Origin: Bacteroidota bacterium
Lineage (GTDB): Bacteria > Bacteroidota > Bacteroidia > Flavobacteriales_D > Crocinitomicaceae
DNA length: 64,000 nucleotides
NCBI GenBank assembly: GCA_006226425.1
Contig: SBGX01000012.1
Span: 1 to 64,000 of the forward strand
Direction: 5' to 3'
In this document: positions 103 to 5,540 of the stretch, in pieces
Position numbering within the stretch: position 1 is the first letter of the stretch
Layout of the letters: the number at the start of each line of letters is the position of its first letter
Program-made: the position numbers and the translations under genes
Notes under the pieces: generated by a model
The model's input: only the letters and a program-made list of their open reading frames with translations
Told to the model about the DNA's origin: nothing
Databases searched by the model: none

Positions 103-1260
103 TTAATGATTATTTCCATGTTCCGGCTGTCTTAAATGACTGATCCAGCTTTCATACATTTTTTGTGGCACTTCCCGGAATCCGAGTTGATAAATGCTTC
201 GGATTAACTCTTCGTGTTCCTTTTTTAAAGCTAGGTCAGGGTCAATTTTGAGCTGTGCGAAAAGGACTTTCGCTTTTAGCAAACGGGCATTGATACAGTT
301 CGGAAAGTTCTTTAGTACCTCTTCGCAGCAGGAAAGAATAAATTGACCGTCTCCCATTCCCCTTTGAAAGTGGTAAGCCTGTGCCAAATCCAATAGAACG
401 AGCGAAATTTCTTCCTGTTTACTCAACGCTTTCATGTAGATGCCACTTTGTACAGCTTTTAGAGAGATGTAACCGGAAGACATGATCCAGCCATCCGAAG
501 GAAAGCTGGCACTCGTTAATTCTGTGTTGAACATTCCGGTGGCTTTAGCCGAATGTTTTAGATAAATATGATGAGGTGCAAGGGCTAAATGGCTGGGAAC
601 GTCCCAGGCATCTGCCAGCATTTTGTAGAGGTAAACCAAAGCCTGACAATTTCCTTTTTTGCTATTCAATAATTTTGAAACCAGATTTCGATCCCAACGA
701 TTCGAGTCAAAAGCCTGTTCGTGATCATACAGAAAGGGGAGGTGCTGGAGTTCCACGCCTTGAGATTCCATTCGTAGGGTGTCTGTGATAAGGTGAAATA
801 ACGAAGCGTGTTTGAGCATTTGTTCCTGGTCTGTTTCCTGGTAGAGAAACACTTCTGCATGACTTTGTTTGTGTAGTTCGGCCAGATAAAGCAGGTTTTG
901 CAATTGCGCTTCAAAGTGCTTGCGATCCAACGAACCATTGTGAAAGGCATTCTCCATGTGGAAAAGGGCTTCTTTGAAGCTTTCTTTAGCCGGATTCCGA
1001 ATCAATGATTGAATGCGCTTAAATGCAAGTGCATAGTAGTCCGGGGCCAAGTCTTTGTGTATCTCATGTTTTGATCTATTGATCAATTCCATTGGAATCA
1101 AACTATCTGCTCTTTCCTGTGCGTGGCTGATTGAGTCCAGATGAGCTGTTTTTTCTTCCGTGGTAGTAACAGTTGTTAGATTCGTTTTTCTGGCGCAGGC
1201 AAACAGGACAATGATTCCACAGAGTAGAACAGAAAGTTTCTTCAATCCTCGTTTATTCAT
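103..1260 (-). CDS. Transglutaminase-like lipoprotein with C-terminal helical repeats
   Basis: A 385-residue predicted lipoprotein (lipobox around LFAC, Cys21). A transglutaminase-like core is suggested by KKGNCQALVYLY (Cys205), ALAPHHIYLKH (His230/231) and FNTEL (about residue 245), the Cys-His-Asn/Asp order of this papain-like fold. The C-terminal third (about 280-370) is helical and TPR-like. It is a paralogue of the gene just upstream (1253-2605), with which it overlaps by 8 bp, so the two are translationally coupled. The role is unknown; a periplasmic or surface peptidase, or a cross-linking or scaffold function, is inference. The sequence does not show whether the Cys-His pair is active. 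Confidence 0.65.
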   Translation of the reverse strand: MNKRGLKKLSVLLCGIIVLFACARKTNLTTVTTTEEKTAHLDSISHAQERADSLIPMELINRSKHEIHKDLAPDYYALAFKRIQSLIRNPAKESFKEALFHMENAFHNGSLDRKHFEAQLQNLLYLAELHKQSHAEVFLYQETDQEQMLKHASLFHLITDTLRMESQGVELQHLPFLYDHEQAFDSNRWDRNLVSKLLNSKKGNCQALVYLYKMLADAWDVPSHLALAPHHIYLKHSAKATGMFNTELTSASFPSDGWIMSSGYISLKAVQSGIYMKALSKQEEISLVLLDLAQAYHFQRGMGDGQFILSCCEEVLKNFPNCINARLLKAKVLFAQLKIDPDLALKKEHEELIRSIYQLGFREVPQKMYESWISHLRQPEHGNNH

Positions 1261-2605
1261 GTCCCAATTGATTTAACCAGTTTTTGTATTGAGTTTCACT
1301 CATGTATTCCAGTCCTAAACCGTCTGTTAAGGCATACAACTTGTTTCGTTGGATGAAGAGTTTTTTTGTCACCGGATCATTGATCACTTCCCGTTCTTCC
1401 CGATAAGCTTTTTGGTAGGCCACATAATTGAGCAACACGGTATAGTAATTTGATTTTTCCAGAAGGGCTAAAACGTTCGTTGAGTGTACTTCCAATACCC
1501 GATTCATGCACTGCAAACTAAAGGCATCGTATGCGACTCGCATATCGCGGGTATGAAAACGCATCCGGTAATAAAGGGCCAGATCATTCAGACAATTAGC
1601 GACGACCATTTTTTTGTTGAGGGTGTCCATATAAACCCCGCTACGGATCGCTTCTGCCTTGACGAAGCCGGAGGCGACAAGCCAGGAATCTGAAACGATG
1701 TGACCGTTTGTTAGTTCCAGATTATACAAATCTCCATTGCGTTTTCGGCATTTGATAAAACTATGGGAGGGGGCAAAGGACAAATAGGCTTTTCCGCCCA
1801 GTTCTTCGACCAGGATCAAAAAGAGGAGGGGCATGGACTTACATTGTCCGCTTTTTTCGGCGAGCAGTTTACTTACAAAGAGCTTTCGCAGGTCACGCAC
1901 CCCGAATGGATCACTGAAATCATAGGCGATTGGGTAAGACTTTTGCGGTTTTATTTGCTCTGAAAGTGTCAGCGTATCACACAAATAACGATGGACAATG
2001 TAATTGATGTTCTGTTCATTCACGTCCAATTGTTCCTGCTTTAAACAGGCTTTTAGAAAGAATCCGGTTTGCTCCAGTTGTTTACAGTAATCCGTATAGT
2101 TCATACGTCCATCAAAAAAGGCATTTTCACAAAGAAAAACGGCTCTCTTGAGACTCATGGGGCTTTCCCCTTCCAACATGGTATTTATTTCGGAATAGGC
2201 TTCCTGAAAGCGAAAGGAACTTTGTTTGCTCACCGCATCCGGGAGGGATGTACGGATGATCTGCTCGTTTTCCTGAAAAGTGAATTCTTTTTGAATCAAC
2301 TCCTGGATATAGCGAATGGAGTTTTCCTGTTTCTCTGGAAATAAGGATTCACCGTTCATTCTTTCCGAACGCTTTTGGTAATAGGCAAAAATCGCGTTTG
2401 GTGATTGCGTGATGCTCTGTGATTTATTTTGGGTGGGATGCCTTACAATGACCGGGGGAGGGGAATAGGTTTGCTTATTCGATGGCCTGCCTTTGTTCAC
2501 GTCAATGACCTGATAGTGCTGGAAAGAGGGACTTGTTTGGGATAAAAAAGGAAGGCAGGACCAAAGGAAAAGGAGGGTAAATACTATAGAATTTGTTTTT
2601 TTCAT
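1253..2605 (-). CDS. Transglutaminase-like secreted protein, paralogue
   Basis: A 450-residue protein with an N-terminal signal sequence (hydrophobic residues 8-21, then SQTSPS). It shares an order of motifs with the next gene: KSGQCKSMPLLFL (Cys255), SFAPSHSFIKC (His281), YNLELTNG (about 294-301), then a shared W(I/L)(M/V)(A/S)SG(Y/F) block and an (I/V)xSG(I/V)YM block before a helical tail. This supports a tandem duplication. Compared with its partner it has a longer linker after the signal peptide (about residues 25-90, rich in Pro, Gln and Ser). It is first in a run of three same-strand genes. Function unknown; the transglutaminase-like fold is inferred from the motifs. Confidence 0.65.
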   Translation of the reverse strand: MKKTNSIVFTLLFLWSCLPFLSQTSPSFQHYQVIDVNKGRPSNKQTYSPPPVIVRHPTQNKSQSITQSPNAIFAYYQKRSERMNGESLFPEKQENSIRYIQELIQKEFTFQENEQIIRTSLPDAVSKQSSFRFQEAYSEINTMLEGESPMSLKRAVFLCENAFFDGRMNYTDYCKQLEQTGFFLKACLKQEQLDVNEQNINYIVHRYLCDTLTLSEQIKPQKSYPIAYDFSDPFGVRDLRKLFVSKLLAEKSGQCKSMPLLFLILVEELGGKAYLSFAPSHSFIKCRKRNGDLYNLELTNGHIVSDSWLVASGFVKAEAIRSGVYMDTLNKKMVVANCLNDLALYYRMRFHTRDMRVAYDAFSLQCMNRVLEVHSTNVLALLEKSNYYTVLLNYVAYQKAYREEREVINDPVTKKLFIQRNKLYALTDGLGLEYMSETQYKNWLNQLGHE

Positions 2606-2656: not shown

Positions 2657-4873
2657 TCAATAAATGAGATTGGAAATAGATGTGTCGATTACCTTTTCAA
2701 AAACTCCAACGACCCTAAACCGCGATAATTCATCATTTTTTAGTTCAATTGTGTTATAGGAAGTGTCATAAGATTGTGGTTTCAAAAGAATTTTGTGGTG
2801 TTTCCATCCGTTTTTATCCTGAAATTTTTTACTCTCATATTCTTTTATTGTATAACATGATCCAAGGTCCTGATCCTGAAAATCAGTGCTCTCAACCAAT
2901 ACAATTTGTCCATTTCTGGAACCGCCCAAGTACTTACGGAAGAGGCAAATGGATCCATGTGGAATGATCTTATTCATTGATTCACCGATAACTTGGCAAG
3001 CGAACAAATCCGTGCTTGGTTTTACATTTTTAGGTAGCTTGATCCATTTCGTTTCTTCAACTGTTTGATGTTTTCCAAAGTTTCCGGCAGCCACTTTTAA
3101 GTTATAAAGGGGAATTGAGTTTTCATAGGGAATAATCTTGTCTTGAGGTATGAGTATTTCTAATTCACCCGAATTATTTTCATATTTGGGAATAAATGAT
3201 TCGAAGTATTTTCGCAGCTGTGGGTCACAAACATATACGTAGGTGCCTTTTATACCACGAAGCATGATCGTTTTGTAAATATTGACAATAAATGTCTTAA
3301 GCTCTTCTTTTGATTCTACAGACTGCTTCCCATTTTTATCAAAGTAGTTTTCTTCTCTGATAATAATTTCCTTTTTAATGGGATCATATGAAATTTCATT
3401 CCCGAAAATGATCCCGGCGTAGTTTAAATCATACCCTTGAGTAGTGTGAATGCAACCTACTTCATTAATTGAATTTTTAGAGTTTATCCAATCGCTCGAT
3501 GTTCCATTCCACTTTAAATGAATTCCATCTATTTCTATATCCAAAAGTTCTGGGTTCTTATTCGATATCCATTCCCAAGAATAGCCAGCGATTAGACGAG
3601 ACAAACCACTTTCATTATTTCTTTTTTTTATCTGAGAGAACATCTCTTCCAAAGATTCGAATAAGATGAATTCATATTCGGTTGAGTTAAAATTATTTTG
3701 GGAATAATGTAATTTGCAATTTAGGAGCGAATCAATGAAGTCAACATAAGCGTTTCCTCCCATTGCTCTGAATTGTGATTTTAGCTTTAATATTAAGGTG
3801 TTCTTATTTGATTTTAGCTTGCAAAAAGCTTCTTTTTTTACGTCCGAAGGTTTTATAGATTGTCCTTCATCATAGAACAGTATGGTATTCAATGATTGCA
3901 TTGTTACCCAATCTAATTCACTACAACTGTATTTGTCTAGATTTAAAGTTTCACATGTTTTATCGAAAGCTCCAAAATAAGTGCCCAGATTAACTCTTCT
4001 TCGCAACCTATGTGATTCATCAACCATTAATATATCGTACTTACCTTTACGGACTTCTGCTGGGCTTATGACCATGTTTGCATTCAGGCCTTTTATATTC
4101 TTAAAAACTTTTTTTAACGTTGTTCTAAATGAAGACATAGGTACCACTAGCGCCATTTTGGGTTTAGGAAACCTCTTTTTAACTTGATTTACAAGCTCAA
4201 CAAAGTTGTCTTCTTCTGTTCCGAATCCCCTGAAACTAAAATCGCTTAATTCACTAGAAAGCATTTTAAAGAGAAAGGTGGCTAAAATAGTTTTTCCAGT
4301 ACCAGCTCCACCTTCTACAATGGTATTTTCAAACTTTCTTGTTGCTAGACTTTCAAGTATTTGCAGTAAACTATTCCTTTGCTCTGTAGTTAGGCTTTTA
4401 TACGGTGAATATTTGAATAAGTCAGAATTGCCTATATGTTCTATTGAATGTTTTGTAATTCCTTCAGAGCGCAATTGATCCCAGATAGTATTGAAAATCT
4501 CCCAATACACTTCTTTTTTTTGGTAGTAGTTATGATTCGCTAATCCTAGATTGCCATTTAGAAGTTGATAAACATTGTCTCCAGACATATATTTGATTAG
4601 GTTCGACTCAATGTCAAGTGTAGCTGATTTGTTGAATTTTTCACTAGCTATGAGATGAACGGATGTCAACTTACTCTTTTTATAGTGCTTTAAGTGTGTG
4701 CCCATTCTAGAATAGGTGTCTGTAGTCTCTCCTATGTATGCTATTTTAGTCTCTTGGTCACTAAGAATGTATACTAATGGCCATAAATCCTTAGCAAAAT
4801 GATTGGCGCTAAGGTTTTCAAAAAGGCTACTTTCGAAATCGTAATGATTTATTTTGATTTGAGTTGGAATCAT
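2657..4873 (-). CDS. GIY-YIG nuclease / DUF2075 helicase / S24 peptidase fusion
   Basis: A 738-residue three-part protein. Residues 32-100 form a GIY-YIG nuclease-like domain: VYIL (34-37), AYIGET (45-50), Arg56, His60 and the Glu of DIES (about 89). Residues 160-565 form a DUF2075 (Schlafen-group) P-loop helicase-like domain: Walker A EGGAGTGKT (187-195), Walker B ILMVDESH (281-288), FYDEGQ (333-338), QFRA (367-370), HTTQGYDL (476-483) and an Arg-rich MLRGIKGTYVYVCD block (537-550). Residues 620-735 resemble the S24/LexA peptidase: VIGESM (Ser632) and YTIKEY (Lys677) give the Ser-Lys dyad. It directly follows a MazG-like gene (stop and start abut, TAAATG). A DNA-damage- or phage-triggered nuclease/helicase is inference. 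The region looks AT-richer than its neighbours. Confidence 0.82.
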   Translation of the reverse strand: MIPTQIKINHYDFESSLFENLSANHFAKDLWPLVYILSDQETKIAYIGETTDTYSRMGTHLKHYKKSKLTSVHLIASEKFNKSATLDIESNLIKYMSGDNVYQLLNGNLGLANHNYYQKKEVYWEIFNTIWDQLRSEGITKHSIEHIGNSDLFKYSPYKSLTTEQRNSLLQILESLATRKFENTIVEGGAGTGKTILATFLFKMLSSELSDFSFRGFGTEEDNFVELVNQVKKRFPKPKMALVVPMSSFRTTLKKVFKNIKGLNANMVISPAEVRKGKYDILMVDESHRLRRRVNLGTYFGAFDKTCETLNLDKYSCSELDWVTMQSLNTILFYDEGQSIKPSDVKKEAFCKLKSNKNTLILKLKSQFRAMGGNAYVDFIDSLLNCKLHYSQNNFNSTEYEFILFESLEEMFSQIKKRNNESGLSRLIAGYSWEWISNKNPELLDIEIDGIHLKWNGTSSDWINSKNSINEVGCIHTTQGYDLNYAGIIFGNEISYDPIKKEIIIREENYFDKNGKQSVESKEELKTFIVNIYKTIMLRGIKGTYVYVCDPQLRKYFESFIPKYENNSGELEILIPQDKIIPYENSIPLYNLKVAAGNFGKHQTVEETKWIKLPKNVKPSTDLFACQVIGESMNKIIPHGSICLFRKYLGGSRNGQIVLVESTDFQDQDLGSCYTIKEYESKKFQDKNGWKHHKILLKPQSYDTSYNTIELKNDELSRFRVVGVFEKVIDTSISNLIY

Positions 4874-5203
4874 TTAAAGTTCGTTATACTTTTTTGCAGT
4901 TCCTTTTGACTTACTCACAGGGTATTTTTCTCCGTTCTTTTTTATTTTTTCTAAAAGAATTTCCTTTACGTTAAAGTCATACTTTTCTGCCAAGAGAAAA
5001 GCATATGCTAAAACATCCGCCAACTCCTCTTTTACTCTTTCTAGATTAGCCTCTCCAGCAGATTTCCAAAGAAAATTTTCTAAAAGTTCTCCTGCTTCAA
5101 TGTTGAGAGCAACTGCTAAATCTTTAGGATTATGAAACTGCTCCCAATCTCTATCATTTCTAAAACGGATTAAAGTCTCAATAATTTCTTCTATGTCACT
5201 CAT
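4874..5203 (-). CDS. MazG-like nucleotide pyrophosphohydrolase
   Basis: A 109-residue all-alpha NTP pyrophosphohydrolase of the MazG/dCTPase (RS21-C6, XTP3TPA-like) type. The metal-binding helices are visible as EAGELLE (EXXE) and EELADVLAYAF (EXXD), preceded by the typical RDWEQFHNPKDLA start. Such enzymes hydrolyse (d)NTPs to monophosphates and clean up modified or excess dNTPs. Its TAA stop is followed with no gap by the ATG of the GIY-YIG/DUF2075/S24 gene, which implies coordinated, coupled production. Acting with its partner in dNTP depletion or defence is inference; a lone house-cleaning dCTPase is the plain alternative. Confidence 0.85.
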   Translation of the reverse strand: MSDIEEIIETLIRFRNDRDWEQFHNPKDLAVALNIEAGELLENFLWKSAGEANLERVKEELADVLAYAFLLAEKYDFNVKEILLEKIKKNGEKYPVSKSKGTAKKYNEL

Positions 5204-5243
5204 ATTTTATTTCTAAATGAAATATAACTATTTGCTAAAGGTA

Positions 5244-5393
5244 TTACTTTATTTTTCCTTTGTAAAATTCATTGTGTACACTGGGTTGAAAATTTAGAAA
5301 GAGTTGTTTTTCCATGTTTAGTTTGTGTCGTTTACCAAGTTCAGCAAAAGGCACATAGGATTTCTTCTTAATTGGTTTAGTATCATGATTCAT
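5244..5393 (-). CDS. Possible 49-residue basic peptide upstream of the MazG-like gene
   Basis: A short ORF reading MNHDTKPIKKKSYVPFAELG and onward to a GKIK C-terminus, rich in Lys. It ends 40 bases before the MazG-like start on the same strand, so it could be a leader gene of that unit. No family is recognised. With no conservation data it may be non-coding; it is listed because its composition is protein-like and it sits in the only large gap of the window. Confidence 0.3.
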   Translation of the reverse strand: MNHDTKPIKKKSYVPFAELGKRHKLNMEKQLFLNFQPSVHNEFYKGKIK

Positions 5394-5417
5394 TTAATCC
5401 CGAAATCACAAATTCTT

Positions 5418-5528
5418 TTAGTTAAGTGAATAAGGAAAACCATAAGGCAATTTTTCATTGCTTGGATCGTTGATCTCATTTCTAATGAAGCAGAAAACGT
5501 AGACTACAGCGAGCGTTGATGAGCTCAT
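5418..5528 (-). CDS. Possible 36-residue peptide or gene remnant
   Basis: An ATG-started ORF with a hydrophobic stretch (STLAVVYVFCF) followed by a polar tail (NEINDPSNEKLPYGFPYSLN). It lies 24 bases upstream of the 49-residue ORF and just downstream of the TonB receptor gene end. It could be the broken tail of a lost gene or a small membrane peptide. The rest of the 5204-5540 gap shows no RNA gene or clear hairpin. Confidence 0.18.
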   Translation of the reverse strand: MSSSTLAVVYVFCFIRNEINDPSNEKLPYGFPYSLN

Positions 5529-5540
5529 AACACTCTGAAA

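What the first reader, a model, noticed from the sequence alone, without database searches (positions are those of the whole stretch)
2657..5203. Coupled MazG-like pyrophosphohydrolase and a GIY-YIG / DUF2075 helicase / S24 peptidase fusion
The sequence shows three intact modules in one protein: a GIY-YIG nuclease (catalytic Glu and Arg present), a Schlafen-group helicase with full Walker motifs, and a LexA-type S24 domain with both Ser632 and Lys677. GIY-YIG-DUF2075 proteins are known in databases; the added S24 domain suggests self-cleavage triggered by a damage or phage signal. The partner enzyme could deplete or sanitise dNTPs. The zero-gap TAAATG junction and lower G+C than neighbours point to one transferred, possibly defensive unit. 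The function is inference.
Basis: partly seen in the sequence, partly recalled or inferred. Interest (0 to 1): 0.78.

Follow-up and report, generated by a model that had tools for sequence, protein, structure and literature searches.

The report
Predicted self-cleaving restriction nuclease operon
A two-gene bacterial unit pairs a small enzyme resembling animal dCTP pyrophosphatase with a nuclease-motor protein that carries a LexA-like, probably self-cutting tail; related tails sit on other restriction motors, suggesting a shared built-in switch.

Summary
In detail: window 4874-5203(-) encodes a MazG-like enzyme, followed at a zero-gap TAAATG junction by a 738-aa GIY-YIG / Schlafen-group-3 helicase / S24 protein. 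The pair recurs: of the best 80 genome loci kept, 74 have GIY plus helicase, and 73 of these hold the MazG-like gene (the other starts at a contig edge). The S24 domain folds like LexA's catalytic domain (Z 15.3); Ala596, Ser632 and Lys677 are invariant in 70 of 70 proteins aligned, Gly597 in 69. New here: the same S24 subfamily ends SauUSI-like, type I HsdR and type III Res motors. The small partner is DCTPP1-like; SauUSI-like proteins often have a NUDIX partner instead; the four type I/III S24 loci checked have neither. Best reading: ATP-dependent restriction with a self-cleavage switch, plus a pyrophosphatase that clears C5-modified dCTP. Domains, folds and pairing are shown; cleavage, its trigger and direction, and the pyrophosphatase's role are inferred. 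Ten searches of open-licence papers found no description.

The parts
4874..5203 (-). MazG-like all-alpha NTP pyrophosphohydrolase gene (109 aa), DCTPP1-like; first gene of the pair
   Evidence: Pfam MazG-like 4.2e-21; dCTP pyrophosphatase 1 1.9e-17 over residues 5-109; model vs mouse dCTPase with 5-Me-dCMP Z 12.4, rmsd 2.1, 99 aligned; E36, E39, E60, D63 in 35 of 35 aligned
2657..4873 (-). GIY-YIG / SLFN-g3 helicase / S24 protein gene (738 aa), second gene, TAAATG junction with the first
4592..4777 (-). GIY-YIG nuclease domain (residues 33-94), Arg56 and Glu89
   Evidence: Pfam 3e-6; Y35, Y46, G48, R56, H60, E89, N106 each 70 of 70
3224..4324 (-). Schlafen-group-3 helicase/translocase domain (residues 184-550)
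   Evidence: Pfam 1.3e-60; structural matches FBH1, PriA, Dda, UvrD, SLFN11 at Z 12.8-13.6; K194 and E286 70 of 70
2675..3118 (-). S24 (LexA-type) peptidase domain, residues 586-733
   Evidence: Pfam 4e-7; LexA C-terminal domain 1jhe Z 15.3, rmsd 2.0, 121 aligned
3083..3088 (-). predicted scissile Ala596-Gly597 bond
   Evidence: A596 70 of 70, G597 69 of 70
2978..2980 (-). codon of predicted nucleophile Ser632
   Evidence: 70 of 70
2843..2845 (-). codon of predicted general base Lys677
   Evidence: 70 of 70

Best explanation
A mobile, single-polypeptide, ATP-dependent restriction unit. GIY-YIG is the endonuclease and the SLFN-g3 domain the DNA motor. The C-terminal S24 domain is a LexA-type self-cleaving switch: when RecA-ssDNA filaments (or an equivalent damage or invasion signal) form, the Ala596-Gly597 bond is cut by the Ser632-Lys677 dyad, separating nuclease-motor from S24 domain. 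I think cleavage most likely turns restriction OFF (built-in restriction alleviation that spares a broken host chromosome), because the same domain sits on HsdR and Res, enzymes that must be active before damage arises. The DCTPP1-like partner most likely hydrolyses dCTP analogues modified at C5 and so keeps host DNA free of the mark the nuclease attacks (or starves phages of that building block). Shown: domain content, catalytic residues, folds, recurrent pairing, S24 on other restriction motors, signs of horizontal spread. Inferred: self-cleavage, RecA as trigger, OFF direction, modified-cytosine specificity, role of the pyrophosphatase.
For: S24 residues and fold. The S24 profile at E<=1e-10 in 390 Bacteroidota genomes gives 18 matches: 10 GIY-SLFN, 5 SauUSI-like, 2 HsdR, 1 contig-edge fragment, and no LexA/UmuD-type protein (at most 9 candidates scored per genome; architectures). 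Type III Res-S24 next to a type III methyltransferase. HsdR-S24 in one run with HsdM, HsdS, PtuA- and PtuB-like genes in two genomes. MazG-like gene with 73 of 74 (in one of them, L143, about 0.6 kb away) and 19 of 19 GIY loci, and kept where the N-terminal nuclease differs (L159, L160). Partner DCTPP1-like; SauUSI-like relatives have an upstream NUDIX gene in 8 of 8 close and 10 of 22 distant loci, best solved match a putative CTP pyrophosphohydrolase. Specific 5-methyl-dCTP hydrolases are reported for E. coli Orf135 and mammalian RS21-C6/DCTPP1 (PMC10742078, passage; that Orf135 is a NUDIX enzyme is recalled). SauUSI cuts m5C/hm5C DNA with ATP (PMC3874153, section). Neither partner in the four type I/III S24 loci, three of which have a methyltransferase; no ORF similar to those two methyltransferases (two probes only) among 1191 ORFs of 99 loci, mostly GIY loci. 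PADLOC models matched: 54 among 75 neighbours, 2 among 75 controls.
Against: No experiment. No recognised modified-base-reading domain in the protein. S24 is optional: a MazG + GIY-SLFN pair without it exists (L046), and 13 of 18 NUDIX-paired SauUSI-like loci lack it, so S24 and pyrophosphatase are separate add-ons. Type III Res-S24 has Thr and one GIY protein Ser where Gly is expected. Nothing shows RecA contact. SOS motif CTAA-N5-TTAG: no perfect copy upstream of the window operon and none upstream of 71 homologous operons, where copies with up to one mismatch are no commoner than in shuffles (4 loci against a mean of 6.65). Plasmid-induced EcoKI alleviation does not need SOS (PMC11109961, passages). 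NUDIX partners score between MutT and NudG models, below every cut-off, and the same paper lists MutT and MazG enzymes with other substrates. Motor-to-MazG distance correlation is weak, r 0.29. Of ten neighbours picked by hand and scanned singly, one matched a PADLOC model. The window operon's own flanking genes are not defence genes.
Confidence: 0.5

Rival explanations
1. S24 cleavage is an ON switch: the intact protein is held inactive by its tail, phage-made ssDNA/RecA filaments trigger cleavage and release the nuclease (a late-acting or suicidal defence); the pyrophosphatase depletes dCTP to starve the phage.
For: Same residues and fold; the MazG partner resembles an enzyme that also acts on plain dCTP (PMC7162842, abstract and passage).
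Against: The same S24 domain on HsdR and type III Res, enzymes that act on DNA entry (recalled); S24-free forms of the same motors exist, so the tail is not needed for them to be tolerated.
Confidence: 0.22
2. The S24 domain is no protease switch in practice but a dimerisation or docking module (for RecA, other DNA-bound proteins or a partner), with the dyad kept for structural reasons.
For: Type III Res-S24 and one GIY protein lack the scissile Gly.
Against: Ala, Ser and Lys are invariant in 70 of 70 and Gly in 69, and all four in the 17 full-length proteins found without motif-based selection; a mere dock need not keep scissile bond and dyad together.
Confidence: 0.13
3. The unit is a DNA-damage repair or mutagenesis cassette, not defence: the nuclease-helicase processes lesions, S24 acts like UmuD, MazG cleans the nucleotide pool.
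For: House-cleaning enzyme, helicase, nuclease and SOS-type domain all fit stress functions; few neighbours are known defence genes. Three one-mismatch SOS-motif copies lie upstream of the window operon, a number reached by 0 of 1000 local shuffles (post hoc).
Against: Sporadic (no match in 3 of 4 congeners) and scattered in a tree; S24 subfamily shared with restriction subunits; no SOS-motif enrichment over 71 operons; split or truncated copies occur; related GIY-SLFN proteins sit beside MrcB_N and SauUSI-like genes.
Confidence: 0.12

Closest known systems
SauUSI (type IV, PLD-helicase-DUF3427; PADLOC mREase_IV) and its NUDIX neighbour (PADLOC PDC-S07)
   Same: Single-chain nuclease plus ATP motor, a nucleotide-hydrolase gene just upstream in 18 of 30 loci, and in 5 of 30 the same S24 tail
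   Different: PLD instead of GIY-YIG, another helicase family, DUF3427 present, NUDIX instead of MazG-like partner
LexA / UmuD / phage CI self-cleaving S24 proteins
   Same: Ala-Gly bond, Ser-Lys dyad, catalytic-domain fold, the determinants named in PMC8565304 (passages)
   Different: No DNA-binding domain found; the partner domain is a nuclease-helicase; sequence too far for a significant PDB hit (best LexA E 0.18)
Type I HsdR and type III Res subunits
   Same: Some carry the same S24 C-terminal domain
   Different: Methyltransferase genes beside them in three of four loci, and no MazG-like or NUDIX partner in any of the four
DCTPP1 / RS21-C6 dCTP pyrophosphatase
   Same: Full-length sequence match including DWEQFH and the C-terminal tail; fold
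   Different: Shorter, bacterial, and beside a nuclease-helicase gene in the loci examined
EcoKI restriction alleviation by ClpXP
   Same: Silences a restriction motor that threatens host DNA (PMC4231737, abstract)
   Different: Uses an outside protease; here the proposed protease is part of the motor chain

Membership tests
S24 / LexA-type self-cleaving peptidase | Ser-Lys dyad | tested here: met
   S632 and K677 70 of 70 (the scan patterns held both residues, so that set is biased) and 17 of 17 in the set found without such patterns
S24 / LexA-type self-cleaving peptidase | Ala-Gly scissile bond before the Ser | tested here: met
   A596 70/70, G597 69/70, not part of the scan patterns; 17 of 17 in the unselected set
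S24 / LexA-type self-cleaving peptidase | LexA catalytic-domain fold | tested here: met
   1jhe Z 15.3, rmsd 2.0, 121 aligned; model pLDDT 64-86 per ten-residue block over 581-730
S24 / LexA-type self-cleaving peptidase | RecA-stimulated self-cleavage | not testable with these tools
   needs purified protein
DCTPP1-like all-alpha NTP pyrophosphatase | EXXE and EXXD metal-binding motifs | tested here: met
   E36, E39, E60, D63 35 of 35 (35 of 73 MazG genes were aligned, chosen by hand; motif name recalled)
DCTPP1-like all-alpha NTP pyrophosphatase | hydrolysis of dCTP / C5-modified dCTP | not testable with these tools
   needs an enzyme assay
Type IV (modification-dependent) restriction enzyme | nuclease plus NTP-driven motor domains | tested here: met
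Type IV (modification-dependent) restriction enzyme | a recognised modified-base-reading domain (such as DUF3427, MrcB_N, SRA) | tested here: not met
   none in the Pfam scan of the protein
Type IV (modification-dependent) restriction enzyme | no cognate methyltransferase | tested here: inconclusive
   two methyltransferase probes found nothing among 1191 ORFs of 99 loci; other methyltransferase families were not probed
Type IV (modification-dependent) restriction enzyme | cuts only modified DNA | not testable with these tools
   needs an enzyme assay
Schlafen family | Schlafen core (RNase) domain | tested here: not met
   only the group-3 helicase domain is found
GIY-YIG nuclease | GIY/YIG tyrosines, Arg, Glu | tested here: met
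   Y35, Y46, R56, E89 70 of 70

The most novel reading that the evidence does not exclude
A LexA-type self-cleaving domain is a general, transferable safety switch of restriction motors (type I, type III, SauUSI-like and GIY-SLFN), read out directly by RecA filaments without transcription; and restriction systems that lack a methyltransferase replace self-marking by precursor sanitation: a nucleotide pyrophosphatase (DCTPP1-like or NUDIX) keeps the targeted modified nucleotide out of host DNA.
Probability: 0.27. Interest if true: 0.9.

Novelty: new variant of a known kind. Interest (0 to 1): 0.72.

Why it matters
How restriction motors are kept from destroying a damaged or newly entered host chromosome is only partly understood (ClpXP in E. 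coli). A self-cleavage domain fused to several unrelated restriction motors would be a second, protein-intrinsic answer, testable with a few point variants in laboratory E. coli. The recurring dCTP-type pyrophosphatase offers a testable reason why methyltransferase-free restriction enzymes might need a nucleotide-cleaning partner.

Tried and rejected
Phage origin: viral-contig scans with the protein and with the full alignment found no relative; the S24 profile found two IMG/VR contigs, one with HsdR-S24 and one with type III Mod and Res-S24. In the plasmid and phage collections no record covers 80% of the protein (40 and 4 records matched); only the Halomonas plasmid row reaches into S24, in another frame than the helicase ORF. 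Empty-site test failed: neither flanking protein was found in the four congeners. SOS box: three one-mismatch copies lie upstream of the window operon (0 of 1000 local shuffles reach three, but the test was made after seeing them), yet no perfect copy, and over 71 operons nothing above shuffles; the second Bacteroidetes motif GGA-N5-TCC was not tested. Promoter and terminator scan uninformative. The whole-model Foldseek list is dominated by helicases. NCBIfam gave nothing over a cut-off for either protein. GIY-YIG did not appear in the structural list, which the two larger domains fill, so this is inconclusive. Literature: no S24-restriction fusion and no MazG/GIY-YIG/DUF2075 system seen in the listings of ten searches (two were for background) over open-licence papers only; one likely relevant survey was not held. 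PMC7159879, PMC12839542 and PMC3710099 were searched for terms only and hold no such system in the passages.
Full report
What is there. On the minus strand, 4874-5203 encodes a 109-aa MazG-like protein and 2657-4873 a 738-aa protein; the stop of the first and the start of the second form TAAATG. Pfam, over its cut-offs, finds GIY-YIG (33-94), SLFN-g3_helicase (184-550) and Peptidase_S24 (588-679). PADLOC gives only weak matches and NCBIfam nothing over a cut-off. The pair has G+C 0.340 against 0.423 for the window. The genes on either side are a TonB receptor and two proteins without a Pfam family over cut-off, not defence genes.

A recurrent mobile pair. In 395 Bacteroidota genomes, 25 matched the protein at E<=1e-20: 12 with the GIY part (the window's genome included), 13 only in helicase or S24; in 59 relatives, 11 matched, 9 of them with the GIY part (the own genome is in both). 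Stretches of up to 20 kb were read for 28 places. All 19 GIY-containing loci (L038-L056) have the MazG-like gene next door; one of them lacks S24 (L046), one is split into two ORFs (L039) and one truncated (L056). Of the 74, 73 have the MazG-like gene and the other begins at a contig edge; in L143 it lies about 0.6 kb away. One of 4 congeners matched, at 52% identity, while a genome of another family has 73%. In a quick tree of 70 proteins Pseudomonadota need three changes and Flavobacterium sequences fall in several places, which fits horizontal spread, though many rows are MAGs. Distances of motor and S24 correlate at r 0.73, MazG and S24 at 0.44, motor and MazG at 0.29, with none of 2000 permutations as high (68 pairs); shared ancestry alone can give this, and the low last value suggests some partner exchange.

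The S24 domain has what self-cleavage needs. In 17 full-length proteins found without motif selection, Ala596, Gly597, Ser632 and Lys677 are invariant; in the 70-row set A596, S632, K677 are 70 of 70 and G597 69 of 70. A596-S632 and S632-K677 are 36 and 45 residues apart. The AlphaFold model (70-row alignment, mean pLDDT 84.2, pTM 0.68, S24 blocks 64-86) places residues 586-731 on the LexA C-terminal domain, best 1jhe (a LexA mutant; that it shows the cleavable conformation is recalled), Z 15.3, rmsd 2.0, 121 residues, followed by LexA and lambda repressor structures with RecA filaments. By sequence the profile barely reaches LexA (E 0.18). PMC8565304 (passages) names the Ala-Gly bond and Ser-Lys dyad as determinants of RecA-mediated self-cleavage and reports SOS regulators of this type in Bacteroidetes. 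Dyad distances could not be measured because the tool returns no coordinates.

The same S24 sits on other restriction motors. At E<=1e-10 the S24 profile matched 18 of 390 Bacteroidota genomes: 10 GIY-SLFN, 5 PLD-ResIII-DUF3427 (SauUSI-like), 2 HsdR, 1 fragment at a contig end (architectures). It matched 5 of 398 Pseudomonadota genomes, the centre genome included: 3 GIY-SLFN and 2 SLFN proteins with another N-terminus, in which I see by eye a PD-(D/E)XK-like VDFIL...IVELK motif; both still have a MazG-like gene, in one case downstream. In L062, HsdM, HsdS, PtuA-, PtuB-like and HsdR-S24 genes stand in one run, and L063 repeats it (HsdR 76%, HsdM 71%, PtuA 52%, PtuB 48% identical, a distant HsdS). 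In IMG/VR one contig has HsdR-S24 after PtuA- and PtuB-like genes, the latter below the NCBIfam cut-off, and one has a type III methyltransferase followed by Res-S24. The type III example keeps Ser and Lys but has Thr at the Gly position. No LexA- or UmuD-type protein was caught at this threshold (at most nine candidates a genome were scored), so within these samples the subfamily looks dedicated to restriction motors.

The partner. The MazG-like protein matches DCTPP1 over its whole length (1.9e-17), including DWEQFH and the C-terminal tail; its model matches mouse dCTPase with 5-Me-dCMP at Z 12.4, tied with an archaeal pyrophosphatase at 12.8. DCTPP1 hydrolyses dCTP and, in vitro, 5-methyl-, 5-formyl- and 5-halo-dCTP (PMC7162842, abstract and passage). 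Searching 390 genomes with the PLD-helicase part gave 43 matches in 41 genomes; 30 loci were examined: a NUDIX gene lies upstream in 5 of 5 with S24, 3 of 3 close ones without, and 10 of 22 distant ones. One such NUDIX is closest to a putative CTP pyrophosphohydrolase structure, but the five scanned score below all NCBIfam cut-offs, between MutT and NudG-type models. PMC10742078 (passage) states that highly specific 5-methyl-dCTP hydrolases are E. coli Orf135 and mammalian RS21-C6/DCTPP1; that Orf135 is NudG, a NUDIX enzyme, is recalled. SauUSI cuts m5C and hm5C DNA with ATP (PMC3874153, section). Neither MazG-like nor NUDIX is found in the four type I and III S24 loci, three of which have a methyltransferase; two methyltransferase probes found nothing in 99 loci, mostly of the GIY type. 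So the pyrophosphatase tends to follow the nucleases without a known methyltransferase, and S24 is a separate add-on. The sample of type I/III loci is small.

Defence context. Among 75 immediate neighbours PADLOC models matched at 1e-15 numbered 54, with seven system names in the 25 shown; among 75 length-matched control genes, from 20 stretches of genomes that carry the operon, 2 models of one system. The tool does not say how many proteins these are; ten neighbours picked by hand gave one with matches. The enrichment is modest. In Paenibacillus a related SLFN protein with a GIY match just under the cut-off lies beside an MrcB_N gene, and in one fecal phage-labelled record a similar protein (GIY weak) lies beside a SauUSI-like and a MazG-like gene.

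Mechanism and verdict. Best reading: ATP-driven restriction with an internal self-cleavage switch, probably OFF after damage, with a pyrophosphatase clearing C5-modified dCTP. Shown are parts, folds, pairing and shared S24; the rest is inference. EcoKI alleviation in E. coli runs through ClpXP (PMC4231737, abstract) and, when plasmid-induced, does not need SOS (PMC11109961, passages), so an intrinsic RecA-read switch would be new. There is no sign that the operon is transcriptionally under SOS control across relatives. MazG domains in general have been predicted as defensive before (PMC13092281, section). Novelty: a new variant of restriction; I would not file it as type IV, because no modified-base reader was found.

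Noticed in passing
window 103-1260 and 1253-2605 (-): Two adjacent overlapping paralogous genes (27.6% identity, 7e-31) without a Pfam family over cut-off; the second was not found in four congeners.
   Followed up: partly
window 5204-5540: Three one-mismatch copies (5235, 5368, 5409) of the Bacteroidetes SOS motif CTAA-N5-TTAG upstream of the operon; not seen across relatives.
   Followed up: partly
L136 6249-8465; L150 3289-6447: S24 copies with the scissile Gly changed (Ser; Thr) but the Ser-Lys dyad kept: natural candidates for non-cleaving variants.
   Followed up: partly
L039 8896-11082; L056 2895-3590; L087; L096; L135 3269-4003: Split, truncated or remnant copies of the nuclease-helicase gene; a MazG-like gene or part of it lies beside all but L135.
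   Followed up: no
L062 9036-17719; L063 1838-10570; L149 759-6456: HsdR-S24 directly after PtuA/PtuB-like (Septu) genes; in L062 and L063 also HsdM and HsdS in the same run.
   Followed up: partly
G223:C17 (L047, L166): One contig carries the GIY-SLFN-S24 operon and two SauUSI-like genes, at least one with a NUDIX partner, within about 110 kb.
   Followed up: no
L192 1105-1911 (G000:C32): The host's only other S24 protein over the Pfam cut-off is a 268-aa protein that by eye has an N-terminal HTH, possibly an SOS- or phage-type repressor.
   Followed up: no
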